Shown: positions 3,309-13,995, counted from the stretch's first letter. The stretch: 14,097 bases of DNA from a candidate division TA06 bacterium SM23_40 (GCA_001303705.1 LJUI01000059.1:1-14097), one strand, 5' to 3'. The notes: generated by a model not told the origin, from the letters alone. A program made the numbers and translations.

Positions 3309-3349
3309 GGAGCTGAGGCGATGATGCGCCGGGTGATCGTCTCAGCTCC
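3309..3349. terminator. 14-bp hairpin immediately upstream of promoter A
   Basis: GGAGCTGAGGCGAT (3309-3322) pairs with ATCGTCTCAGCTCC (3336-3349) with a single G-U, enclosing a 13-base loop. It ends 8 bases before the -35 element at 3358. The same stem recurs at 5579-5619, where a T-rich tail follows, so it is probably an insulating terminator; a palindromic operator is the alternative. A smaller nested hairpin (GGGGC/GCCCC inside CGCC/GGCG, 3280-3305) lies just upstream. Confidence 0.6.
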
Positions 3350-3357
3350 TTATGTTC

Positions 3358-3386
3358 TTGACACACTCGCCGAATAGGTGTAGACT
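3358..3386 (+). promoter_or_regulatory. sigma70-type promoter of RNA module copy A
   Basis: Perfect -35 TTGACA (3358-3363), exactly 17 bases of spacer, and -10 TAGACT (3381-3386). A TSS is predicted near 3392-3394. The corresponding element at 5631-5659 keeps the -35 and the spacing while most of the spacer differs, so the hexamers look selected. Confidence 0.85.
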
Positions 3387-3391
3387 CCCAA

Positions 3392-3544
3392 GGTAGGCGT
3401 TGAGTTCCCGAGATTTCTGCCGGCTTGGGACCGGCAGAGGACGCCCGGTGGCCTCGGGAGCGGTTTGGCACTACAACAGCTCAGGATACATCCATCGAGA
3501 GCGACACCGAGCGTCACGGGTGAGGGGTCGTTCTTTTCTTTTTT
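3392..3544 (+). ncRNA. candidate structured RNA, copy A (sRNA or attenuating leader)
   Basis: About 150 nt between a strong promoter and a T-rich terminator. TTCCCGAG near the 5' end pairs with CTCGGGAG about 55 nt later. Inside, CTGCCGG/CCGGCAG forms a 7-bp hairpin, and TTGAG/CTCAG can close the outside. The 3' end is the terminator at 3502-3544. Copy B (5665-5816) keeps long blocks unchanged, and its changes in the inner hairpin preserve pairing (C-G to U-G and G-C to G-U). There is no sizeable open frame with a ribosome-binding site in it. The next gene starts 36 bases after the T-tract, so the RNA could be independent or could attenuate that gene. I do not recognise it as 6S, SRP, tmRNA, RNase P or a common riboswitch. 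Confidence 0.6.
3502..3544 (+). terminator. terminator at the 3' end of RNA copy A
   Basis: CGACACC (3502-3508) pairs with GGGGTCG (3524-3530) with one mismatch. An inner CACC/GGTG pairing is also possible. An almost unbroken T-tract follows at 3531-3544. The hairpin sequence is identical in copy B. Confidence 0.75.
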
Positions 3545-3580
3545 GGCCATCGGTGGATCTCCGTCTCACGAAGGGGTGGA

Positions 3581-4513
3581 ATGGTGACGACTGGGAGAGG
3601 CATGTGGATCGGACCATTGCTCTTGCTCGTAGCGCTCTGCTCTTCTGCCATCCTCATCTTCTCCTGTGTGGGAACCGCCACAAGAGAAGAGTTCGATTTG
3701 GGCGGAACGGATGCCGAGTTCACGGCAGGCAAGGCAGAGAAGTGGCATGAGGAGATGCCTGAACTGTCCGAGGAGGCGATCGACTTTCTCAGGGGGTTCT
3801 CGAACAGACTGCGTGCAGTCGGCCGACGTCCTGGATGTGGTGGGGCCACAAGCGATAACTTCCGATTTTCGGTGTTGTATGCCGATACCCACATCATAGT
3901 CCGCGACTGCGACGGGGATTCCGAGTGGTCTCATCGCACATTCCCGTTCTTTTGGACGAGCTTTTACGTAAGCGATGATGGGCAGATCGCAACCATATGT
4001 GGGACTGACGAGCTGGGAAGGACGTGCCGGCTAGAGATATACGATCCCGATGGATTGCGAGGTGCGTGGGAGAATGACTCACTGATTTCATGGGTCTCTC
4101 GACTCTTTCCGAGTGGCCACTACATAGCGATCATGGGTCAGTCCAAGCCATATGTGACGCTTGTCGACAATCGCGGGGAAGTCCAATGGGTCAAACGGAT
4201 TCCCAGCCTTGACGGACACTGGGCTGCCGTGAGTTCTGCCTCACCCGATGATGACTTTGTGGCTTTCGCTGTCCCTCTAATCGATTATCCGAGAACGCAG
4301 GAAGTTCAGTTGGTGATTATCGGTGTCGACGGCAAGGTTAGGTGCGATACCACACTTTCTTACGGCCGGTTCCCCGCCATCCGAGTGGATTCAGAATTCG
4401 TGGCGGTCGGTGTAGCAAATGAGTGGTTGGTGTACCGAACTGAGTCGGGGAAGCTAATAGGCACTCTGTCTAACGAAAAGTTCAAGGCGTTGGCTCAGTG
4501 GTGGGCACCGTGA
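3581..4513 (+). CDS. membrane-anchored or lipoprotein beta-propeller-like protein
   Basis: 310 residues. The N-terminus has a hydrophobic segment (about 10-28), then Cys29 in IFSC, a slightly atypical lipobox (Phe at -2); the protein is either a lipoprotein or held by an uncleaved anchor. A linker with an acidic helix (EEAIDFLRGF) follows. From about residue 95 come repeated strand-rich units: VSDDGQIATICG, FPSGHYIAIMG, SPDDDFVAFAVP and FVAVGVANEWLVYRTESGK. These look like WD40 or quinoprotein-type propeller blades, about four to five, fewer than a full propeller. The ATG has AAGGGGTGG just upstream; Met8 (3602) is an alternative start. Codon use looks less GC-biased than in the beta-helix genes. 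RNA copy A lies upstream and a beta-helix tail remnant follows 20 bases after the stop, as if this gene replaced the body of a paralogue. Confidence 0.85.
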   Translation: MVTTGRGMWIGPLLLLVALCSSAILIFSCVGTATREEFDLGGTDAEFTAGKAEKWHEEMPELSEEAIDFLRGFSNRLRAVGRRPGCGGATSDNFRFSVLYADTHIIVRDCDGDSEWSHRTFPFFWTSFYVSDDGQIATICGTDELGRTCRLEIYDPDGLRGAWENDSLISWVSRLFPSGHYIAIMGQSKPYVTLVDNRGEVQWVKRIPSLDGHWAAVSSASPDDDFVAFAVPLIDYPRTQEVQLVIIGVDGKVRCDTTLSYGRFPAIRVDSEFVAVGVANEWLVYRTESGKLIGTLSNEKFKALAQWWAP

Positions 4514-4532
4514 TCTAATCAGGGGAGCGTGG

Positions 4533-4571
4533 GACAGCAGCAGCTTCGAGTTCAAGGTGGTGGAGCCGTAG
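4533..4571 (+). pseudogene. C-terminal scrap of a beta-helix paralogue
   Basis: In the frame ending TAG at 4569-4571 the codons read DSSSFEFKVVEP. This matches the family ending (DxxFxFxVVEP) seen in the intact genes and in the remnant at 2160-2216. Homology stops within about 12 codons, and the DNA upstream belongs to the unrelated gene ending at 4513. Confidence 0.7.
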
Positions 4572-4698
4572 GGCGGGTACAGGTCTCCTTTTCAGGGTTT
4601 GGTGTGCGATATCAGGCGCCTGGCCGGACAGGGAAAGAAAGGGCGCGCTCTCGTGGCCCATTGGGCCCATCACGGCACCAAGAGGAGGAGAGATTCAG

Positions 4699-5238
4699 AT
4701 GAGGGTTCTGGTGCTTCTAACGCTGAGCACTGCCCTGGTGTTGGGTTGCTCGGAGGAGGAGGAAGCTGTCTCAACCAGCCCCGATGAGGAGCCAAACCTC
4801 AGGTGCGTTAGAGTCCACTGGACCGACGATGGCTATATTCCGCTATGGGACCGCAAACAAGGACCCGATGCGATGTATACTCTCTGCGTCGGCGATACGA
4901 TCGATTCACTCTACGTGATAGTCCTTCAAAACTGGTGGTTTGGATGCACTTTCCCACTTTCGCAACCGTTTACCTTCTCGAGTCTTCTTCTTGAAGATGA
5001 AGAGAGAGTAGCCCTCCAATCAGACACGTATAGGGGATTGTACGTACCCGATGATACTTGGTTGTATGGAGGACAGCTTCCCTTTTGCCTTTCTGCCATT
5101 TCGACCCCCAACAACGGCATCATAGAGGCAGCAGCACAGGGAGACACAGTGGTGGCGACGTTCTATCCGCTCGCCGTCTTTCCCTTTCCGACCAAGTTCG
5201 GTATAGGCGTGAGCGACACGATGCGAGTGCTTCCATAG
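4699..5238 (+). CDS. small secreted lipoprotein of unknown function
   Basis: 179 residues. The N-terminus is a clean lipoprotein signal: a short MR start, hydrophobic stretch 3-15, and lipobox V14-L15-G16-C17 followed by an acidic linker (SEEEEA). The mature part is strand-rich with several further cysteines (in NLRCVRV, YTLCVGD, FGCTF, PFCLSA), consistent with a disulfide-containing beta domain outside the cytoplasm. A hydrophobic, aromatic segment with QNWWFGC sits in the middle. The ATG at 4699 has AGGAGG (4683-4688) at 10-base spacing. It lies 127 bases after the beta-helix scrap and shares no similarity with that family. I recognise no named domain. A terminator-like hairpin lies 91 bases after the stop. 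Confidence 0.85.
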   Translation: MRVLVLLTLSTALVLGCSEEEEAVSTSPDEEPNLRCVRVHWTDDGYIPLWDRKQGPDAMYTLCVGDTIDSLYVIVLQNWWFGCTFPLSQPFTFSSLLLEDEERVALQSDTYRGLYVPDDTWLYGGQLPFCLSAISTPNNGIIEAAAQGDTVVATFYPLAVFPFPTKFGIGVSDTMRVLP

Positions 5239-5329
5239 GTATAGGTGCACTGCTGCTCGCGGCGGCGGACGCCTTTCTCTTCTTCGCGGTAGTGAAGCCG
5301 CAAGTTGGACGAGGCAGAAGGTACGGAAC

Positions 5330-5357
5330 GCCCGCTCTTCCGGGTCGAAGGGCGGGC
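5330..5357. terminator. GC-rich hairpin, probable terminator
   Basis: GCCCGCTCTT (5330-5339), 8-base loop, AAGGGCGGGC (5348-5357): ten pairs including one wobble. It belongs to the same hairpin family as 225-252 and 2243-2270. No T-tract follows. Confidence 0.55.
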
Positions 5358-5380
5358 ATCGTATGTGGTTATGTGGGGAC

Positions 5381-5438
5381 GAGCGCCGCAGTTGTACGCA
5401 GTCGGTAACCTCGAAAAATACGTGTACCCCTGGGGACA
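5381..5438. repeat. 58-bp dispersed repeat, copy 1
   Basis: Matches 8118-8175 with about eight mismatches. The distal 34 bases (from GTAACCTCGAAAAATACG onward) differ at only two positions. This copy includes GTGTACCCCTGGGGACAC, an inverted repeat with a single bulge. Neither copy is coding. It may be the end of a REP-type or insertion-sequence-derived element; no transposase is present here. Confidence 0.7.
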
Positions 5439-5440
5439 CC

Positions 5441-5472
5441 AGCCTAGGGTTTGACGGCTCTAACCCTAGGCT
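5441..5472. repeat. perfect 11-bp inverted repeat
   Basis: AGCCTAGGGTT (5441-5451) and AACCCTAGGCT (5462-5472) are exact reverse complements around a 10-base spacer. It starts two bases after the dispersed repeat ends. TTGACG (5451-5456), 17 bases, then TTATAT (5474-5479) overlaps it and could be a weak promoter, making the palindrome a possible operator; a short element end is the alternative. Confidence 0.65.
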
Positions 5473-5497
5473 ATTATATTGCAGATCTTGTGATCAG

Positions 5498-5575
5498 CTA
5501 GTGGGCCGGTAGGCCTCGGGCCTTCGCCACCTCGGTCGGGAGGCTGAGCGTCCAGCTACCGGACAACGGCCCTAG
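5498..5575. other. possible branched RNA or DNA fold in the intergenic region
   Basis: Nested complementary blocks: CCGGTAG (5506-5512) with CTACCGG (5556-5562), GCCTC (5513-5517) with GAGGC (5540-5544), and outer CTAG/GGGC pairing with GGCCCTAG (5568-5575). It lies directly upstream of the hairpin of RNA module copy B. Chance cannot be excluded in GC-rich DNA. Confidence 0.3.
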
Positions 5576-5578
5576 CTC

Positions 5579-5625
5579 GAGCTGAGGCGATCAATGCGCC
5601 GGGTAGATCGTCTCAGCTCCGTTTT
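5579..5625 (+). terminator. 13-bp hairpin with T-rich tail upstream of promoter B
   Basis: GAGCTGAGGCGAT (5579-5591) pairs with ATCGTCTCAGCTC (5607-5619) with one G-U, followed by CGTTTT. It is the counterpart of 3309-3349; its tail supports a terminator role that insulates the promoter starting at 5631. Confidence 0.7.
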
Positions 5626-5630
5626 CCTTC

Positions 5631-5659
5631 TTGACACCCTTCCTAAATGGGTGTAAACT
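5631..5659 (+). promoter_or_regulatory. sigma70-type promoter of RNA module copy B
   Basis: TTGACA (5631-5636), 17-base spacer, TAAACT (5654-5659). A TSS is predicted near 5665. Same geometry as 3358-3386, with most of the spacer diverged. Confidence 0.87.
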
Positions 5660-5664
5660 CTCAA

Positions 5665-5816
5665 GGTAGGCGTTGAGTTCCCGAGATTTCTGCTGGCCGA
5701 GGGCTGGCAGAGGGCGCCCGGTGGCCCCGGGAGCATTTTGGCACCGTAACAGCTCAGGGTAGGTTATTCGAGAGCGACACCGAGCGTCACGGGTGAGGGG
5801 TCGTTTTTTTGTTTTT
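5665..5816 (+). ncRNA. candidate structured RNA, copy B (sRNA or attenuating leader)
   Basis: About 150 nt, the partner of copy A. The 5' block from GGTAGGCGTTGAG onward and the 3' block from GAGAGCGACACC through the hairpin are unchanged from copy A; the middle varies. The inner hairpin is CTGCTGGCC/GGCTGGCAG, with substitutions relative to A that keep pairing through G-U. The outer CCCGAG/CTCGGG stem has one mismatch here. The beta-helix gene starts 24 bases after the T-tract, so the terminator lies between promoter and gene. That means either read-through control (attenuator or riboswitch) or an independent sRNA. Confidence 0.6.
5775..5816 (+). terminator. terminator at the 3' end of RNA copy B
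   Basis: CGACACC (5775-5781) pairs with GGGGTCG (5797-5803), then seven Ts, G, five Ts (5804-5816). The stem is identical to copy A; the T-tract is longer. Confidence 0.8.
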
Positions 5817-5840
5817 CGCGCTAGATCAACAGGAGAGAGA

Positions 5841-7814
5841 GTGCGGCGAATGAGGCGGACTTGGCCAATGACAGTCGCGTGTTTTGGCGCTATCGGTATG
5901 GCATACGTGGCTCCTGCGACAGTGATACATGTCCCGCAGGAGTACCCGACCATCCAGGCGGGAGTCGATGCCGCGGTAAACGGGGATACGGTGCTCGCGG
6001 CTGACGGCACCTACGCAGGCGATGGTAATCGGGATATCGATTTCAACGGTAAGGCGATTGTGGTCATGTCCGAGAACGGACCGGAGGTCACGATCATCGA
6101 TTGTGAGGGTGACTCCCTCGATCCGCATCGGGGGTTCTTCTTCGGCAGTGGAGAGGGTTCAGCGTCCATCCTGCAGGGGTTCACGATCAAGAACGGATGG
6201 GAGAGTGGCGGCGGGATCCTGTGCTTTCACACTTCTCCCACCATCGTGGGCAACACGCTCATGGCGAATGTCACCGACTTCCGCGGCGGTGGGATCCTAT
6301 GCCACAACGGTTCTCCCGCTATCGTAGGGAATGTGTTGACCGGCAATTCAGCGATGGCCCTTGCCGGGCGTGGCGGTGGCATCCATTGCAGTTCGGGCGC
6401 CTCACCCACCATCGTGGGCAATACGATCCTGGCGAATACGGCTGTGTACGGCGGAGGGATTGGTGTCCTCAATGCCTCTGCGACCCTTCTCGGGAATACG
6501 ATACTCGAGAACACGGCGGAGCTCGAGGGCGGCGGGATATACTGCGATGGCTCGCTCATGTCGGTCACCAACTGCATCCTCCGGGAAGATAGTGCCGGCG
6601 TAGGTGGTGAGATCTCGTTGGCGGACAGGAGTTCTCTTGCGGTCCGTTATTCGGACCTTGAGGGCGGAGCAGGCGCGATCTTCATGCCGCCTGGCTGTAT
6701 CTTGCACTGGGGTGTGGGCAACATCGACGAGGATCCGATGTTTGTGCTGGCCGAACAGGGAGACTACCGTATTATCTGGGACTCTCCCTGTGTGGACGCG
6801 GGTCATCCAGACTCTCTTGACCCGGATAGCACGCGGAGCGATATGGGAGCCCACTACTTCGATCAGAACGACTACATGACCATCTACGTGACGCCTATGA
6901 GTACCGAGGTCACACCGGGCGGCACACTTGAGGTCACCTATACGGCGATGAATCGGTGGGGGTTCCCTGTGTCATACTGGGCGCTGGCCGAGGCGGTTCT
7001 CCCGAATACGCATACCGTGACTGTGATGGGCCCCGATCGCTACACCCTGGCGCCCCACGTCTGGAGGCAGCAGCTAATTGCTCAGGACGTGCCGCTCACT
7101 GCGGAACCCGGGCTGTACCTGTATCGGGCGAGGATCGGTGTACCGCCCAATACGCTCTACGACGAGGACAGCTTCTCGTTCGAGATCGCTCCTGTCTGCG
7201 ACTATCTGATCTGGGAAGCTGATCCGACGCCAATCAGCGGCCAGCCGATCATGGATGCGCTATCTGCCCTTGGCAGGAGTTCCGAGTTCGTGGAGGGTCC
7301 TCTGGGCAACTACGACCTGTTCGCTTACCGCGGACTGTTCATCTGCCTGGGTGTGTACTCGAACAACGCCATGATTATGGAAGGCTCCCCAGAGGCGGCC
7401 CAGATCGAGGAGTACATCGCCGCAGGCGGTAGCGTCTACCTGGAAGGGGGTGATGTCTGGTACTACGACCCCCTGTTCATGGGCGGTCATGACTTCGGCC
7501 CGAGCTTCGGGATCATCCCGATCGATGACGGAGTGGGCCCTTCGATCGGGATCGTCTCGGGCGTGGAGAATTCGCTCATGCCCGGACTCGCTGGCTTGAC
7601 CTCCCCTTACTTCGGCGAGAACGCTTGGTTCGACTGGCTCGGCGCAATACCACCGGCCGAGGTCATCTTCACGATGCTGGATATGCCTCCCGACATTGGC
7701 GTAGCCAATCCGACTCCCTCAGGTGGCCACACCGTCGGGACATCATTCGAGCTCGGTGGAACCGATTTTGTGGGAGAGGTCGTGGCCGAGTTCGTCGCCT
7801 TCTTCGAGGACTGA
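5841..7814 (+). CDS. secreted right-handed beta-helix protein with C-terminal amidotransferase-like domain
   Basis: 657 residues from GTG 5841, chosen because AGGAG (5831-5835) sits 5 bases upstream; ATG 5850 is the alternative, and frame further upstream would start inside the terminator. A signal peptide (RRMRRTW, then a hydrophobic run) likely ends APA before TVIHVP. The mature start YPTIQAG and the DGTY and SENGPEVTIIDCEG motifs match DUF1565/PbH1 proteins. About five glycine-rich turns (GGGI-C...SPTIVGNT) span roughly 123-254, followed by NIDEDPMFV, SPCVDAGHPD, DMGAHYFDQ and the family C-terminal domain to about 451. Residues 452-657 are unique in this array: LIWEADPTPISG, YRGLFICLGVYS and IEEYIAAGGSVYLEGGDVW resemble a Rossmann-type GATase1/ThuA-like fold, without an obvious catalytic Cys. 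It is probably exported or surface-exposed; ligand unknown. RNA copy B precedes it. Confidence 0.93.
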   Translation: MRRMRRTWPMTVACFGAIGMAYVAPATVIHVPQEYPTIQAGVDAAVNGDTVLAADGTYAGDGNRDIDFNGKAIVVMSENGPEVTIIDCEGDSLDPHRGFFFGSGEGSASILQGFTIKNGWESGGGILCFHTSPTIVGNTLMANVTDFRGGGILCHNGSPAIVGNVLTGNSAMALAGRGGGIHCSSGASPTIVGNTILANTAVYGGGIGVLNASATLLGNTILENTAELEGGGIYCDGSLMSVTNCILREDSAGVGGEISLADRSSLAVRYSDLEGGAGAIFMPPGCILHWGVGNIDEDPMFVLAEQGDYRIIWDSPCVDAGHPDSLDPDSTRSDMGAHYFDQNDYMTIYVTPMSTEVTPGGTLEVTYTAMNRWGFPVSYWALAEAVLPNTHTVTVMGPDRYTLAPHVWRQQLIAQDVPLTAEPGLYLYRARIGVPPNTLYDEDSFSFEIAPVCDYLIWEADPTPISGQPIMDALSALGRSSEFVEGPLGNYDLFAYRGLFICLGVYSNNAMIMEGSPEAAQIEEYIAAGGSVYLEGGDVWYYDPLFMGGHDFGPSFGIIPIDDGVGPSIGIVSGVENSLMPGLAGLTSPYFGENAWFDWLGAIPPAEVIFTMLDMPPDIGVANPTPSGGHTVGTSFELGGTDFVGEVVAEFVAFFED

Positions 7815-7842
7815 CAACATTACGGAGACCACTCAGATAGAA

Positions 7843-7875
7843 TGAGCGCCTCACAAGGAGGTGTTCACTTTGTTG
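7843..7875 (+). terminator. possible terminator after the fused beta-helix gene
   Basis: TGAGCGCCTC (7843-7852), loop ACAAG, GAGGTGTTCA (7858-7867): ten pairs including two wobbles, then CTTTGTTG. It lies 28 bases after the stop at 7814. The T-tract is weak. Confidence 0.45.
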
Positions 7876-8383
7876 CCGGCGGGGCTCCCGCTGGGAACTA
7901 TGTTCCTATTGATGTGAGTCGAGAGCTCTCGCTTCATTGCCGATGATCGAGCCCATGAGGCGAAGGACCTGCATTGGAGACAGCGTGGCGCTCGTACGCC
8001 ACAAAAAGTCGTGAAACTCCCGGCTCCCTTTAGGGAGCTGACCTGCACATCAGTCGGCGACCGTGCCCACTCTTAGTGATTGAGGAGAACGTATTTCTTC
8101 GCCCCTCAGGTCGGCGAGAGCACCGCGCTTGTGCGCACTCTGTAACCTCGAAAAATACGCGTACCTCTGGGGACATGTTGAAGCACCTAAGTACCGCCAG
8201 ATGGACAGATCAGGCAGTTATCTCCCACCTTGCAGGGGGTCCTGACCGACTCGAACTCTCTTCTAACAGACTGTTTTGCACCTCCAGGCCGTGCTGGGTG
8301 CCCGCCCCGCTTCATGATCCGCTACGAGCGCGTTCGTTGTCTGCTCCGCACGGGTACCTCTCGCACCTAACCCGCCAAATCTC
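7876..8383. other. intergenic stretch without a supported gene
   Basis: No open frame here has both a ribosome-binding site and a recognisable product. Small perfect hairpins occur: GTGGCG/CGCCAC (7985-8002) and GCTCCC/GGGAGC around TTTA (8023-8038), neither with a T-tract on the plus strand. The second copy of the dispersed repeat lies at 8118-8175. The remainder shows nothing I can name. Confidence 0.4.
8118..8175. repeat. 58-bp dispersed repeat, copy 2
   Basis: Direct-orientation partner of 5381-5438. The 34 bases at 8142-8175 differ at two positions (T to C and C to T); the preceding 24 bases are less conserved. The two copies flank the unit made of RNA copy B and the fused beta-helix gene. 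Confidence 0.7.
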
Positions 8384-8412
8384 TTGACAGGATGGGGCTT
8401 ATGTGATAGGCT
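8384..8412 (+). promoter_or_regulatory. sigma70-type promoter of beta-helix leader type 2, copy 1
   Basis: TTGACA (8384-8389), 17-base spacer ending TGTGA, -10 TAGGCT (8407-8412). The same hexamers and spacing recur at 10329-10357. The start codon it would serve is about 350 bases downstream at 8764, implying a long leader. Confidence 0.8.
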
Positions 8413-8418
8413 CTCGGT

Positions 8419-8656
8419 TGATGAGAAATGCAGGCTGATCCGGCACATGCCCGGCCACCGGCAAGGGATGTGCGGCGCGGGTTGGGGGATGTAGCCATGT
8501 ACCGAGGGTGCCTCCTTGATGGTGGCGAAGGACCTGGGTGACGGGGGCAGGCCGCGAATGGCGGTTGGACCGCTCCACGCGGGTCAATCCGATATCGCAA
8601 AGGAGAACGGCTGCGAGCCTCGAGCTGCGTCGTGCGAGCTTTGAGGAAGTAGCCGT
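8419..8656 (+). promoter_or_regulatory. long structured 5' leader, copy 1
   Basis: Near the 5' end GCACATGCCC pairs with GGGATGTGC (one bulge), close to a block shared with copy 2 (CAGGCTGATCC here, GAGGCTGATCC there). It ends in a nested element: ACGGCTGC (8607-8614) pairs with GTAGCCGT (8649-8656), enclosing CCTCGA-GCT paired with AGC-TTTGAGG. The distance from -35 to this stem is 223 bases here and 224 in copy 2, although the interior has largely diverged. No T-tract follows the stem. The gene start lies 107 bases further on. Confidence 0.55.
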
Positions 8657-8763
8657 GTGTGTTTGGCCTTCGCTCCCGGCGGTATCAGGGGGGAGACGGG
8701 AGATCGAAGCGGCGTGAGGACACAACTTGTCGCACAGAAGAACATCGACAGGAGGATGGTGTC

Positions 8764-10293
8764 ATGAACAAGCGGATGCCTCTAGTATGCGTGACCCTGG
8801 TTCTCGGGCTGAGCATAAGCGTATCAGCGACGGTTCTCCACGTGCCCGGCCAGTACCCGACCATCCAGGCGGGGATTGACGCCGCCGGCGAAGGTGATAC
8901 GGTCCTCGTGGCTGACGGCACGTACACCGGCGACGGGAACCGGGATCTCGACTTCGGCGGCGTGAATATGGTGGTGATGTCGGAGAACGGGCCCGAGGTG
9001 ACGATCATCGACTGCGAGGGGAGCTCTGTGGACCCGCATCGGGCGTTCTTCTTCCACGGCGGAGAGGACCAGAGCTCTGTCGTGCAGGGATTCGAGATCA
9101 CGAATGGGTATGCCGTTGGACTGTACCCATTCAGCGACGGTGGCGGGATTCTCTGCATCAGCTCCTCCCCGAATATCATGTGGAACACTATCACGGATAA
9201 TGTGGCCGTGTACGCCGGTGCGATTTCGTGCGATTACTCGTCCGCGCGAATCGCCAACAACATATTCGTGGGGAATGCTGCCTTTGAGAATGCCGGTGCG
9301 ATCGGCTGCGACTACTCAGATGTGACCATCGCGGACAACACGCTCGTATTGAACAGTGCAGGCTTCGGCGCCGGCGCCATAGGATTCGGCAACTCCTCCA
9401 ATTTGACGATCACGGGGAACATGATCCTGCGGAATACAGCGGGCTGGGGTGGGGGCGGCATCGGCTGCGCGTACTCCGCCGGACTCATCATGGAAAATAC
9501 CTTCGCCGAGAACTCAGCAGATAGTGTCGGGGGCGGCATCGGTGTGGGTTGGCAGAGCTCCCTGGCGATGGTGGAGAACACGATGGCCGGGAATGTGGCC
9601 CCGTTCGGCGGTGCGGTCTGGTGCGACTCCGCCTGCACTGTGACGATGATCAACTCCATCCTCTGGGGGGACAGTGCGGCGCTGGGTCGGGAGATCTGCA
9701 TGGAGAACAGATATGGAGCGCCCAGTTCGGCGACGGTCTCGTACTCGGATGTCGATGGCGGCGAGGTAGAGGTGTATGTTGCCCCGGGATGCGTGCTCAA
9801 CTGGGGCGATGGCAACATCGACGCCTTTCCGGAGTTTGTGCTGCGGTCCAAGCAGGACTACCGTCTGCTGTGGGGTTCCCCCTGCATCGATGCCGGGCAT
9901 CCTGACACGCTCGACCCGGATAATACGCGGTGTGATATGGGCGCCTACTACTTTGATCAGACGGAGTACATGACCCTGTACCTGTCGCCGGATGGGGCAG
10001 TGGTCGTGCCCGGAGGCCTGCTCGGCGTGACGTACACGGTCATCAATCGGTGGGCACAGCCGGAGACGTTCTGGGTGCAGACGGAGGTGCAGTTGCCGGG
10101 CGGGGGCACGCTGAACGTCATCGGTCCTGATCGATACACGTTGCCTCCCGACTTCACGGTACAGCGTTATCTGACTCACAACGTGCCGATGGGGGCACCT
10201 CTGGGCCTGTATGCCTATCGGTCGAGGATCGGAGTGCCGCCCTTTATGATCTACGACGAGTATCACTTCCCATTCTGGGTGGTGGCGCCGTAG
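8764..10293 (+). CDS. secreted right-handed beta-helix protein
   Basis: 509 residues from ATG 8764, which has AGGAGG (8750-8755) at 8-base spacing; the frame is open further upstream but lacks family similarity there. The signal peptide starts MNKRMPLV and probably ends SVSA before TVLHVP. The mature start QYPTIQAGIDAA is shared with the other paralogues. About seven glycine-rich turns span roughly residues 126-309 (GGGILC, GAIGC, GGIGC...), several with GAI instead of GGI. Then come NIDAFPEFV, SPCIDAGHPD (near 372), DMGAYYFDQ and the C-terminal domain with GPDRYTLPP, RIGVPP and the ending FPFWVVAP. The role is unknown; solenoids of this kind often bind carbohydrates or act as adhesins. A promoter and structured leader lie upstream. 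Confidence 0.95.
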   Translation: MNKRMPLVCVTLVLGLSISVSATVLHVPGQYPTIQAGIDAAGEGDTVLVADGTYTGDGNRDLDFGGVNMVVMSENGPEVTIIDCEGSSVDPHRAFFFHGGEDQSSVVQGFEITNGYAVGLYPFSDGGGILCISSSPNIMWNTITDNVAVYAGAISCDYSSARIANNIFVGNAAFENAGAIGCDYSDVTIADNTLVLNSAGFGAGAIGFGNSSNLTITGNMILRNTAGWGGGGIGCAYSAGLIMENTFAENSADSVGGGIGVGWQSSLAMVENTMAGNVAPFGGAVWCDSACTVTMINSILWGDSAALGREICMENRYGAPSSATVSYSDVDGGEVEVYVAPGCVLNWGDGNIDAFPEFVLRSKQDYRLLWGSPCIDAGHPDTLDPDNTRCDMGAYYFDQTEYMTLYLSPDGAVVVPGGLLGVTYTVINRWAQPETFWVQTEVQLPGGGTLNVIGPDRYTLPPDFTVQRYLTHNVPMGAPLGLYAYRSRIGVPPFMIYDEYHFPFWVVAP

Positions 10294-10328
10294 GTGAGGA
10301 TCGGCAGCATCAGCGGCCGGCATTGTCC

Positions 10329-10357
10329 TTGACAGAAGTGGGAGTGTGTGATAGGCT
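10329..10357 (+). promoter_or_regulatory. sigma70-type promoter of beta-helix leader type 2, copy 2
   Basis: TTGACA (10329-10334), 17-base spacer ending TGTGTGA, TAGGCT (10352-10357). It begins only 35 bases after the preceding stop, giving the gene at 10715 its own promoter. Confidence 0.8.
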
Positions 10358-10363
10358 CTCCAC

Positions 10364-10602
10364 TGATAGGAAGTAGAGGCTGATCCGACGCAGGCCCGGC
10401 GACGAGGGATGTGCGGATCTGGGTCTCGTGCCAACTCCTGAAATGACCCGGGAAGGTGGGCCCAGATGGTGGGGCATGTCGGTTGGGGCAGGGCTGGCCC
10501 GGCTGAAGTGGGCCGGGCGGTCGCCTCAGATCAGATAATGCGGTGAAGGCGAACGGCTACAGACCTGGAGTCCTGTGGTGAGGGCTCTGGGGAAGTAGCC
10601 GT
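10364..10602 (+). promoter_or_regulatory. long structured 5' leader, copy 2
   Basis: Partner of 8419-8656. GAGGCTGATCCG and GGGATGTGCGG blocks are kept near the 5' end. Internal stems differ from copy 1: CTGGGTC/GACCCGG, and GCCCGGC (10497-10503) with GCCGGGC (10512-10518). The 3' nested element is kept: ACGGCTAC (10553-10560) with GTAGCCGT (10595-10602), enclosing CCTGGAGTCC paired with GGGCTCTGGG (ten pairs with wobbles). The inner arms differ from copy 1 in sequence but still pair. Confidence 0.55.
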
Positions 10603-10714
10603 ATGCATGTGGGGTATGCGGGTGGACACCGGAAAGGGGGGGAAAGGCGAAGCATTCTGGAGGCGTGCAGACATAAGCACTCACAGAGGAATCTATCAAA
10701 GGGAGGGCGAGGCG

Positions 10715-11905
10715 ATGAGACTGTTGACGACGTTGTGGTGTGCAGCCCTGGTTCTCGGGCTGTGCGGGAGTATCTCGGCCACGGTCATACATGTCCCGGA
10801 CGACTATCCGACCATCCAGTGGGGTATTGATGCAGCGGTCGGCGGTGATACCGTGCTGGTGGCCGATGGCACATACACCGGTTCGCTGAACCGAGACCTC
10901 GATTTCGGCGGCAAGGCGATCGTCGTGATGTCGGAGAACGGGCCGCACGTGACCATCATCGACTGTGAGGGGAGCATCTCAGAACCGCATCGCGGGTTCT
11001 ACTTCCACAGCGGGGAGGGCCCGGCATCCGTGGTGCGGGGGTTCATAATCCAGGGTGGATGGGCCGAGTACGGCGGCGGGATCAATTGCGACAGTTCTTC
11101 TCCCACGATCCAGGGCAACACGATCAGGGGGAATACAGCCGGCTACGACGGCGGTGGGATCTATTGCGGAGAGTGTTCTTCGGTCATCGTCGATAACACG
11201 ATCACAGAGAATGCGGCCAACACCGGTGGGGGGATCGCCTGCTACTACAACTCTTCTCCGACGGTCATGAACACCATCCTCTGGGCAGACGATGCCGGCA
11301 CAGGCCATGAAATCTACCTGGGTGAAGCCAGTTCGATGGCTGTGTCCTACTCGGATATATCGTCTCGATGGTTGGCAGTCTTCGTTGCCCCGGGTTGCAC
11401 CCTGGAGTGGGGAGAGGGTAACATTGAGACGAATCCGAAGTTTGTGCTGGCCAATCTGCAGGACTACCGACTGCTGTGGGGGTCGCCCTGCATCGACGTC
11501 GGGCATCCGGACTACCTCGACCCGGACGGCACGCGGAGCGACATCGGGGCCCACTTCTTCGATCAATCGAAGACCATCGTCGCGTATGCTACGCCCCAGA
11601 CTCGCACTCTGTCCCCGGGTGATAACTGTGCAGTACTCTATGCAATGATCAACATCCACCCTGAGCCAGTAGAGGTGAGAGGGGGCGTTGAGCTTACCCT
11701 GCCCAACGGCGAGCCGTGGTCGGGGAACCCGCTAGAGGGACCTGGCTACACCGTTTTCCCACCTGAGTTCACCTGGCAGATTGTTCGGGAATATACGGTG
11801 CCCGAGACGTGGCCGCTCGGAGTCTCCGTCTTCACCTGGAGAGTGGGAATGCCCGGGAACCTCTACGACAGAGATCGCTTCCTGTTCACGGTGGTGGAGC
11901 CATAG
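10715..11905 (+). CDS. short secreted right-handed beta-helix protein
   Basis: 396 residues from ATG 10715, with GGGAGG (10701-10706) at 8-base spacing. The signal peptide (MRLLTTLWCAALVLGL...) probably ends SISA before TVIHVP. It has the usual DDYPTIQ, DGTYTG and SENGPHVTIIDCEG start but only about three helical turns (roughly 120-198: GGGINC, GGGIYC, GGIACY), the fewest in the array. Then come NIETNPKFV, SPCIDVGHPD (near 257) and DIGAHFFDQ. Its C-terminal domain belongs with that of the next gene (NPLEGPGYTV, GMPGNLYD, ending FLFTVVEP), not with the RIGVPP type of the genes before it, although its leader resembles that of the gene before it. Confidence 0.94.
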   Translation: MRLLTTLWCAALVLGLCGSISATVIHVPDDYPTIQWGIDAAVGGDTVLVADGTYTGSLNRDLDFGGKAIVVMSENGPHVTIIDCEGSISEPHRGFYFHSGEGPASVVRGFIIQGGWAEYGGGINCDSSSPTIQGNTIRGNTAGYDGGGIYCGECSSVIVDNTITENAANTGGGIACYYNSSPTVMNTILWADDAGTGHEIYLGEASSMAVSYSDISSRWLAVFVAPGCTLEWGEGNIETNPKFVLANLQDYRLLWGSPCIDVGHPDYLDPDGTRSDIGAHFFDQSKTIVAYATPQTRTLSPGDNCAVLYAMINIHPEPVEVRGGVELTLPNGEPWSGNPLEGPGYTVFPPEFTWQIVREYTVPETWPLGVSVFTWRVGMPGNLYDRDRFLFTVVEP

Positions 11906-12231
11906 GGCATGTAGGCAGCCTCCAAGGGTGGGGGGTTCTGGAGCGGGCGCGTCAGTATACTCGCCGGTCCCTATGCTCATCCGATAGATGGTGCTGACAG
12001 ATCAGATACTGACGAGCACTGGGCGCCTCTCTGTGAGGCGCTCGTGTGCAGGTGGTTTGGCGCAGGTCGGTGTGTCAGGGGAGCTGGTGTGTCAGGGGAG
12101 GCGGTGCACGGCACCGACCTCAGCCAAGAGGCCCGGTCTGGCCGCGGCCATTGCACCTGTGACGAGGCGCGGTTGTGCAGGTGAGAGCGTCGATTTTGCG
12201 CACAGAAGAACGCCGAAAGGAGGGTGGCGCC
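11906..12231 (+). other. intergenic leader of the fourth beta-helix gene
   Basis: It lacks the type 2 leader and a TTGACA. TATACT (11956-11961) could be a -10 but has no good -35. GGGCGCCTC (12021-12029) pairs with GAGGCGCTC (12035-12043). AGGTCGGTG (12064-12072) pairs perfectly with CACCGACCT (12112-12120), enclosing two direct copies of GGTGTGTCAGGGGAG (12069-12083 and 12086-12100). Just before the gene, CGCACAGAAGAAC (12199-12211) is identical to 8731-8743 in front of the gene at 8764. Confidence 0.5.
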
Positions 12232-13995
12232 ATGGGCAAGCGGACAATTCTGCTGAGTACAACTCTGGTTCTTGGATTGGGCGTAGGCGTCTCGGCGACA
12301 GTTCTTCACGTGCCCAGTGAGTATCCCACAATCCAGGCGGGGATCGATGTAGCGGTCGACGGGGATACCGTACTGGTCGCCGACGGCACGTACACCGGTG
12401 ACGGGAACCGCGACCTCGACTTGGGCGGCAAGGCCATTGTCGTCATGTCCGAGAACGGGCCGCAGGTCACGACCATCGTGTGCGAGGGAAGCGTGCAGGA
12501 CCCCCATCGCGGGTTCCACTTCCACAGCGGCGAGGACTCCGCCTCAGTAGTCAAGGGGTTTACGATCAGGGACGGGTGCGCGCACGGTGTCTGGCCGGAC
12601 TACAACGGTGGTGGTATCTTGTGCAATGTCGCTTCACCCACCATCGAAGGCAACAGGATTACGGGGAATGTAGGAGGCGTGGGCGGTGGGATTTCCTGCC
12701 TGTCGTCCTCGGCGATCATCGTTGACAACGCGATCACGGAGAACTCGGGCTGCGGGATCACATGCTTCCTCAGTTCTCCGATCATCGAAGGCAACACGAT
12801 CGCGGCTAATACGGGCGGTGGCGGCGCCGGGATCCGATGTGAGAACAATTCCTCGCCTACAATCGAGGGCAATACGATCACGGAAAACGAGGCCGGCAAG
12901 GGCGGCGGGATCGGCTGCTGGGAAGACTCCTCGCCGACGATCGCACGCAACGTTATCGCTGGGAACACGACTTCCTCCGGTGGCGGCGCCGGAATCTATC
13001 TCCATGAGAACTGTTCTCCCGGCATCCAGGAGAATACGATCACCGGGAACGTGGCCATGGAGGACGAGAGCGTCGGCGGCGGCATCTGCGGCTGGGTCGA
13101 TTCTTCCCCGACGATCGAGGGCAACACAATCACGGGAAACGCGGCAGGCATGGGCGGCGGGATGGGTTTCGTCGACTTCGGGTCGCCGCTCATCAAGGGC
13201 AACTCAATAGCGGCGAACACGGCAAGCCTGGCTGGCGGCGGGATCTATTGCGGGTGGGACACCTCTCCGACCGTCACCGGGAATACATTCACGGGAAATG
13301 CGTCCGTCTATGGTGGAGGGATGGCGTGCTTCGATAACTCGTACCCCACGGTTATCAATACTATTCTGTGGGGCGACAGTGCTGGGATCGGCGGGGAGAT
13401 ATTTGCGGATGACACGAGTTGGGTGGTGGTCACGTACACCGATGTCGAGGGCGGCTGGCCGGGGGAGGGCAACATAGATACCGATCCGTGGTTCGTCCAG
13501 CAGAGCTGGGGCGACTACCGTCTGCTCTGGCCATCTGCGTGCATCGACTCCGGGCATCCTGATTCTCTCGACCCTGATGGCACGCGGAGTGATATGGGGG
13601 CGCACTTCCTGGATCAGTCGAAACCTCTCGTCATCTATGTGTCCCCGCAGGGACGGACGATAGCTCGCGGACAGATAGGCAGTCTGCTGTACACGATCAT
13701 CAACTGCCACGAGGAACCCGAACCCTGTTGGTGGATCGCAAGGCTCATACGGCCCGGCGGCCAGCCCTGGCCAGGGAACCCGCTGGAGGGGCCCCTCTAT
13801 CTCGTCGTGAAGCAGAACGCTTACTATCAGGCGTACCGGTCGTATACCGTACCTCTCCAATGCCCGCTCGGAACGTGGAGTTTTTCGACCAAACTGGGTC
13901 TGCCGGGGAACCTGTACGATGAGGACGGGTTCCAGTTCACGGTGGTGGAGTCGCGGGGAACTCTATCCGGCGGAGCCGGTGTTCGGGGATTGTAG
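12232..13995 (+). CDS. secreted right-handed beta-helix protein with ten helical turns
   Basis: 587 residues from ATG 12232, with AGGAGG (12218-12223) at 8-base spacing. The signal peptide (MGKRTILLSTTLVLGL...) likely ends GVSA before TVLHVP. After the shared SEYPTIQAG start there are about ten turns (roughly 126-388) with the consensus GGGIxC...SSPTIEGNTITGN, the most regular in the array and visible as 70-80 base DNA repeats. Then come NIDTDPWFV, ACIDSGHPD (near 435), DMGAHFLDQ and a C-terminal domain with NPLEGPLYLV, GLPGNLYD and FQFTVVE. Where relatives stop after VVEP, this protein reads VVES and continues 13 residues (RGTLSGGAGVRGL), apparently by loss of the ancestral stop. Probably exported; ligand unknown. 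Confidence 0.95.
   Translation: MGKRTILLSTTLVLGLGVGVSATVLHVPSEYPTIQAGIDVAVDGDTVLVADGTYTGDGNRDLDLGGKAIVVMSENGPQVTTIVCEGSVQDPHRGFHFHSGEDSASVVKGFTIRDGCAHGVWPDYNGGGILCNVASPTIEGNRITGNVGGVGGGISCLSSSAIIVDNAITENSGCGITCFLSSPIIEGNTIAANTGGGGAGIRCENNSSPTIEGNTITENEAGKGGGIGCWEDSSPTIARNVIAGNTTSSGGGAGIYLHENCSPGIQENTITGNVAMEDESVGGGICGWVDSSPTIEGNTITGNAAGMGGGMGFVDFGSPLIKGNSIAANTASLAGGGIYCGWDTSPTVTGNTFTGNASVYGGGMACFDNSYPTVINTILWGDSAGIGGEIFADDTSWVVVTYTDVEGGWPGEGNIDTDPWFVQQSWGDYRLLWPSACIDSGHPDSLDPDGTRSDMGAHFLDQSKPLVIYVSPQGRTIARGQIGSLLYTIINCHEEPEPCWWIARLIRPGGQPWPGNPLEGPLYLVVKQNAYYQAYRSYTVPLQCPLGTWSFSTKLGLPGNLYDEDGFQFTVVESRGTLSGGAGVRGL

What the first reader, a model, noticed from the sequence alone, without database searches (positions are those of the whole stretch)
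3309..5816. Duplicated module of hairpin, promoter, ~150-nt structured RNA and terminator upstream of two unrelated exported proteins
3309-3544 and 5579-5816 are homologous over about 235 bases. Each has a 13-14 bp hairpin, TTGACA-N17-TARACT, a conserved transcript with a nested hairpin, and an identical terminator stem with a long T-tract. Homology stops at the T-tract, and the downstream genes (propeller-like protein; beta-helix protein) are unrelated. Differences in the inner hairpin keep pairing. The layout fits a small-RNA gene family or an attenuating leader or riboswitch controlling exported proteins. I do not recognise it as a known RNA class.
Basis: partly seen in the sequence, partly recalled or inferred. 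Interest (0 to 1): 0.82.

Follow-up and report, generated by a model that had tools for sequence, protein, structure and literature searches.

The report
New attenuator RNA before exported proteins
A bacterium from a barely sampled phylum carries at least nine copies of a previously undescribed RNA switch that appears to decide, while the message is being made, whether genes for exported (mostly beta-helix) proteins are switched on.

Summary
Window 3309-3543 and 5579-5816 are 84% identical, and seven more copies exist in the same genome (covariance model, E from 7e-41 to 4e-14). All nine lie between a TTGACA-N17-TANNNT-type promoter and an exported-protein gene. In eight of them the start codon follows the T-tract by about 25-40 nt; in the ninth (C79) a broken gene follows further on. 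Seven of the nine precede beta-helix genes.

The RNA is a three-way junction (P1/P2/P3), a linker with conserved AACAGC, and a terminator. Base pairs hold in 96.5% of cells, with double changes above all 500 shuffles. I also found an alternative helix: the P3 segment (GCCCGGUGGC) pairs with the terminator's 5' arm and loop (GRCRCCGAGC). It excludes both P3 and the terminator, and it is the predicted state in 8/9 transcripts just before the terminator's 3' arm is made.

The best reading is therefore a transcription-attenuating leader, probably riboswitch-like with unknown ligand, not an sRNA gene. There is no Rfam match and no homologue in other genomes searched. The upstream hairpin is not part of the unit. 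The antiterminator rests on complementarity and conservation; its covariation is not significant. No transcription or ligand evidence exists.

The parts
3309..3349 (+). 14-bp upstream hairpin; separate repeated element, not part of the leader
   Evidence: fold z -4.6; absent from six of nine leaders and present without the leader at C88
3358..3386 (+). promoter TTGACA-N17-TAGACT, copy 1
3405..3542 (+). leader RNA core, copy 1
   Evidence: R1 161 bits, E 7e-41
3405..3460 (+). three-way junction: P1 3405-3412/3453-3460, P2 3416-3423/3431-3438, P3 3443-3452
3440..3452 (+). antiterminator strand (overlaps P3)
3475..3480 (+). conserved unpaired AACAGC motif in the linker, function unknown
   Evidence: alignment A5; 0.75 identity between the two sequence groups against 0.31-0.43 for flanks
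3497..3544 (+). terminator hairpin with T-tract; 3503-3515 is the site bound by the antiterminator strand
3581..4513 (+). exported, possibly lipoprotein, 310 aa, no Pfam match; start codon 38 nt after the core end
5579..5620 (+). 13-bp upstream hairpin, copy 2; separate element
5631..5659 (+). promoter TTGACA-N17-TAAACT, copy 2
5678..5815 (+). leader RNA core, copy 2
   Evidence: R1 159 bits, E 3e-40
5678..5733 (+). three-way junction: P1 5678-5685/5726-5733, P2 5689-5696/5704-5711, P3 5716-5725
5713..5725 (+). antiterminator strand (overlaps P3)
5748..5753 (+). conserved AACAGC linker motif
5770..5817 (+). terminator hairpin with T-tract; 5776-5788 is the antiterminator target
5850..7814 (+). 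exported beta-helix protein, 654 aa from the ATG (PF13229)

Best explanation
A cis-acting transcription-attenuation leader. RNA polymerase starts at the conserved promoter. The nascent RNA can fold P1-P2-P3, a three-way junction that buries the segment GRYGCCCGGUGGC inside P3; the terminator then forms and transcription stops before the exported-protein gene. Alternatively, that segment pairs with the terminator's 5' arm and loop (GRCRCCGAGCRUC), the terminator stem is cut to about six weak pairs, and polymerase reads through. A signal that stabilises the junction would switch the gene off; one that disrupts it would switch it on. I think the signal is most likely sensed by the RNA itself (riboswitch-like, ligand unknown), with the AACAGC linker and junction nucleotides as candidate sensor elements. 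Shown by sequence: nine copies, promoter, junction, terminator, conserved complementarity, gene position. Inferred: transcription, switching, direction of control, ligand.
For: Nine homologues in the genome, all with a promoter-like pair spaced exactly 17 nt; in eight, an exported-protein start codon 25-39 nt after the core end, too close for another promoter. Structure test: 96.5% of cells paired (slid controls 40-55%), 5 pairs with changes on both sides against 1.7 in shuffles (0/500), covering P1, P2 and terminator. Alternative helix: 96% of cells paired against 17-48% when slid; includes 39-112 C-G to U-A and 46-105 U-A to U-G. Its duplex is the best or within about 1 kcal/mol of the best window of the leader in every copy and beats 92-99.6% of permutations. 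Before the terminator 3' arm exists the helix has probability 0.59-1.0 in 8/9; in the full transcript terminator plus junction is favoured or near-isoenergetic in most. P3 and the target site stay 0.97 and 0.77 identical between the two sequence groups while linkers are 0.31-0.43. The weak tenth candidate at C2 has its best complement at the equivalent GGUGG segment. No Rfam match.
Against: Covariation inside the antiterminator helix is not significant by shuffling (54/500 for cells paired, 312/500 for double-changed pairs), because 7 of 11 pairs never vary. One copy (C117) favours the junction before the terminator is complete (AT 0.12), and two (W3, C168) favour the antiterminator even at full length. 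All sequences come from one genome, so relatedness inflates the counts. Terminator T-tracts are interrupted, and C79's is poor (UUUUGUACUUUG). No expression data, no ligand, and the aptamer-like part is small.
Confidence: 0.72

Rival explanations
1. Attenuator controlled by a protein or a trans-acting RNA, not by a ligand bound to the leader: a regulator binds the linker (AACAGC) or P2/P3 and picks one of the two folds.
For: Same terminator/antiterminator evidence. The conserved single-stranded AACAGC looks like a binding site. The genome has other, different leader types before the same gene family, which would suit regulators.
Against: No regulator gene was noticed next to the copies (not searched systematically). 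P2's CUGC/GCAG base and A9 are invariant or nearly so beyond pairing needs, as in an aptamer.
Confidence: 0.25
2. Family of trans-acting small RNAs that end at the terminator; the downstream genes have their own control.
For: Promoter and terminator delimit a discrete RNA of about 155 nt in most copies.
Against: Every copy lies before an exported-protein gene, in eight of nine 25-39 nt before its start codon with an RBS between, leaving no room for a second promoter; an antiterminator would have no use in an sRNA.
Confidence: 0.08
3. Passive duplicated promoter cassette with a fixed partial terminator: copies arose by duplication and recombination, with no signal-dependent switch.
For: Copies are 80-88% alike in the main group and sit before unrelated genes, which fits cassette copying. 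Beta-helix genes themselves are amplified (53 matches).
Against: Divergent copies (55-66% identity) keep P1, P2 and the terminator by compensatory change and keep P3 and its target almost unchanged while flanks diverge.
Confidence: 0.1
4. Leader-peptide (ribosome-stalling) attenuator.
For: Four of the main-group copies have an ATG or TTG with a weak AAGG/AGGG-like site just before P1.
Against: No reading frame is conserved: stops fall at different places in all three frames, including codon 3 of frame 1 in C168, and gaps are not multiples of three. P2 changes keep pairing but change codons.
Confidence: 0.03

Closest known systems
Transcription-terminating riboswitches in general (established literature; reviewed in PMC10907184, only the abstract was seen)
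   Same: Promoter-proximal junction RNA whose strand is shared between an aptamer-like fold and an antiterminator, followed by an intrinsic terminator and an RBS.
   Different: No ligand known; no sequence match to any Rfam class; controls exported beta-helix proteins rather than metabolism or transport genes.
T-box leaders (RF00230)
   Same: Terminator/antiterminator switch upstream of a gene; a GGUGGC stretch faintly recalls the T-box core (memory, a lead only).
   Different: No Rfam match, no long specifier stem, far too short, target genes not amino-acid related.
Protein-controlled attenuators (e.g. TRAP, LicT/SacY type)
   Same: Alternative terminator and antiterminator hairpins in a leader.
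   Different: No known binding motif recognised; not tested directly.
Candidate structured RNAs of comparative-genomics surveys (PMC2864571, PMC8632094)
   Same: Conserved structured RNA of unknown ligand upstream of a consistent gene class.
   Different: So far known only from one genome of a very thinly sampled phylum; none of the Rfam models matches.

Membership tests
Riboswitch | conserved RNA domain in the 5' leader with compensatory changes | tested here: met
   nine copies, 5 double-changed pairs, 0/500 shuffles
Riboswitch | mutually exclusive terminator and antiterminator folds | tested here: met
   predicted by complementarity and folding; covariation of the alternative helix itself inconclusive
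Riboswitch | direct binding of a ligand by the RNA | not testable with these tools
   needs in-line probing or SHAPE
Any Rfam family (release 15) | score above gathering threshold | tested here: not met
   permissive searches give only chance-level matches
T-box | match to RF00230, long specifier stem | tested here: not met
   no Rfam match; leader core is only about 138 nt
Leader-peptide attenuator | conserved short reading frame in the leader | tested here: not met
Trans-acting sRNA gene | independent of the downstream gene | tested here: not met
   all nine copies lie before exported-protein genes, eight with a start codon 25-39 nt after the core
Protein-dependent attenuator | cognate RNA-binding protein | not testable with these tools
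   no linked regulator noticed; not searched systematically

The most novel reading that the evidence does not exclude
A new riboswitch class sensing an unidentified metabolite or second messenger that sets expression of an amplified family of exported beta-helix and other surface proteins, one of at least three unrelated leader-RNA types doing so in this genome.
Probability: 0.42. Interest if true: 0.78.

Novelty: new variant of a known kind. Interest (0 to 1): 0.6.

Why it matters
It would be an undescribed class of attenuator RNA with a fully specified, testable switch, found in a phylum represented by one held genome, and it would link RNA sensing to a large set of exported beta-helix proteins of unknown role. 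Finding its ligand would say what such bacteria sense before they change their surface proteins.

Tried and rejected
DNA search of 98 genomes across the domain: only the own genome. R2 model on 386 genomes: only the own genome, but only 8 candidates per genome were scored. R2 in the two small phyla whose genomes also carry related beta-helix proteins (3 and 8 genomes): nothing. GTDB-wide exact pattern scan: 32 loci, none a convincing leader; best 19 bits, E 0.0035 for that search. Viral contigs: 3 pattern matches, all chance level. Plasmids: no match. A second antiterminator pairing between AACAGC and the terminator 3' arm was considered by eye; the one register counted did not pair consistently, so it is not claimed. 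C163 and C92 weak matches (14-18 bits) judged chance. Leader peptide and T-box ideas rejected as above. Literature searches gave no paper describing this leader.

Full report
Observation. A DNA search of the source genome (2.88 Mb, 90% complete, G000) found further copies at once. A covariance model built from six copies raised the number to nine clear members, E from 7e-41 to 4e-14, and one weak candidate at C2 (E 0.004). Rebuilding the model with all nine did not change the set.

Context. In all nine the order is the same: a sigma-70-like promoter with a spacer of exactly 17 nt (hexamer matches 9-11 of 12), the RNA core, a T-tract, and an exported-protein gene. The distance from the core end to the start codon is 25-39 nt in eight copies, with a purine-rich RBS between. 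In the ninth (C79) the first gene is broken by an in-frame TAG and follows further down. Seven of the nine sit before beta-helix proteins, one before an FG-GAP repeat protein (C160), and one (window 3581) before a probable lipoprotein with no Pfam match. The short gap leaves no room for a second promoter, so the gene must be reached by read-through past the terminator (inference). In the two copies C89 and C168 the promoter lies about 120 nt before the core; elsewhere about 45-49 nt.

Secondary structure. The alignment supports a three-way junction: P1 UUCCCGAG/CUCGGGAA, P2 UCUGCYGG/CYGGCAGA and P3 GCC-CGGU-GGC; then a linker with conserved AACAGC, and a terminator. On the model-fitted alignment 96.5% of cells pair, against 40-55% in slid controls, and five pairs change on both sides against 1.7 in shuffles (0 of 500). 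An alignment made without the model gives nearly the same consensus, with six pairs showing double changes. Examples are P1 8-50, G-C to C-G in C89, and terminator 103-128, A-U to G-C. Single-sequence folding energies are mostly unremarkable, so the case rests on comparison, not stability.

The switch. Two features were unexplained by this structure: P3 (GCCCGGUGGC) is almost invariant even in copies that are only 55-66% identical overall, and so is the top and loop of the terminator (CRCCGAGC), where a terminator needs no fixed sequence. They are complementary. Columns 37-49 pair with 102-114 in an 11-pair helix with two mismatches. Forming it excludes P3 and takes the upper part of the terminator's 5' arm, leaving about six weak terminator pairs. 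Duplex energies are -15 to -19 kcal/mol, better than 92-99.6% of permutations. In transcripts cut just before the terminator's 3' arm the helix has probability 0.59-1.0 in eight of nine copies; in complete transcripts terminator and junction win or are close in most. That near-balance is what a terminator/antiterminator switch needs (inference from established riboswitch mechanism). The limits are real: shuffling does not make the helix's covariation significant because seven of eleven pairs never vary, C117 behaves differently, and all sequences share one genome.

What it is not. No Rfam model reaches its threshold in the window or in the copies scanned, and permissive searches give only chance-level matches. 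No reading frame is conserved. The upstream 13-14 bp hairpin is absent from six copies and occurs without the leader at C88, so it is a separate repeated element.

Distribution. No homologue was found in 98 genomes by DNA search, in 386 genomes across the domain by model, in two small phyla with related beta-helix proteins, in plasmids, in a viral-contig pattern scan or in a pattern scan of one genome per GTDB species. The own phylum is represented by this genome alone, so lineage restriction is expected and absence elsewhere is weak evidence.

Wider picture. The genome encodes 53 matches to the beta-helix N-terminal region, and other upstream regions carry at least two further leader types. 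Type B is a covarying hairpin CGGCUAC...GUAGCCG at window 8600-8666 and 10546-10612 and at three other loci. Type C is a terminator GGACCUGAGCGGUGGAGCUGCUCGGGUC with U-tract at C122, C42, C169, C116 and more weakly C155. Neither matched Rfam where scanned. RNA-level control of this surface-protein family therefore looks general in this organism (inference).

Verdict. A transcription-attenuating leader RNA of a new sequence class, confidence 0.72; a true ligand-binding riboswitch is likely but unproved, about 0.4.

Noticed in passing
window 8383-8666 and 10328-10612: Second leader type before the next two beta-helix genes: TTGACA promoter-like start and a downstream hairpin CGGCUAC..GUAGCCG with covarying inner stem; also at C4, C11 and C28.
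   Followed up: partly
L093 (C122), L096 (C42), L109 (C169), L125 (C116), L101 (C155): Third leader type: conserved terminator GGACCUGAGCGGUGGAGCUGCUCGGGUC plus U-tract between promoter and gene, mostly before beta-helix genes.
   Followed up: partly
whole genome G000, e.g. window 5850-13995 and L085: 53 matches to one beta-helix N-terminal family in 2.88 Mb, including a long same-strand run on C117.
   Followed up: partly
window 5443-5489: Sub-threshold Acido-Lenti-1 match (24.9 bits against a gathering score of 37, E 0.047).
   Followed up: no
window 5440-5623 and L007: Stretch ending in the 13-bp hairpin resembles DNA just 3' of a tRNA-Glu gene at C88.
   Followed up: no
window 5381-5438 and 8118-8175: 58-bp direct repeat, 86% identical, apparently outside genes.
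   Followed up: no
L112:2150-2322: Weak tenth leader candidate (E 0.004) before a secreted non-beta-helix protein; its best antiterminator complement lies at the equivalent GGUGG segment.
   Followed up: partly
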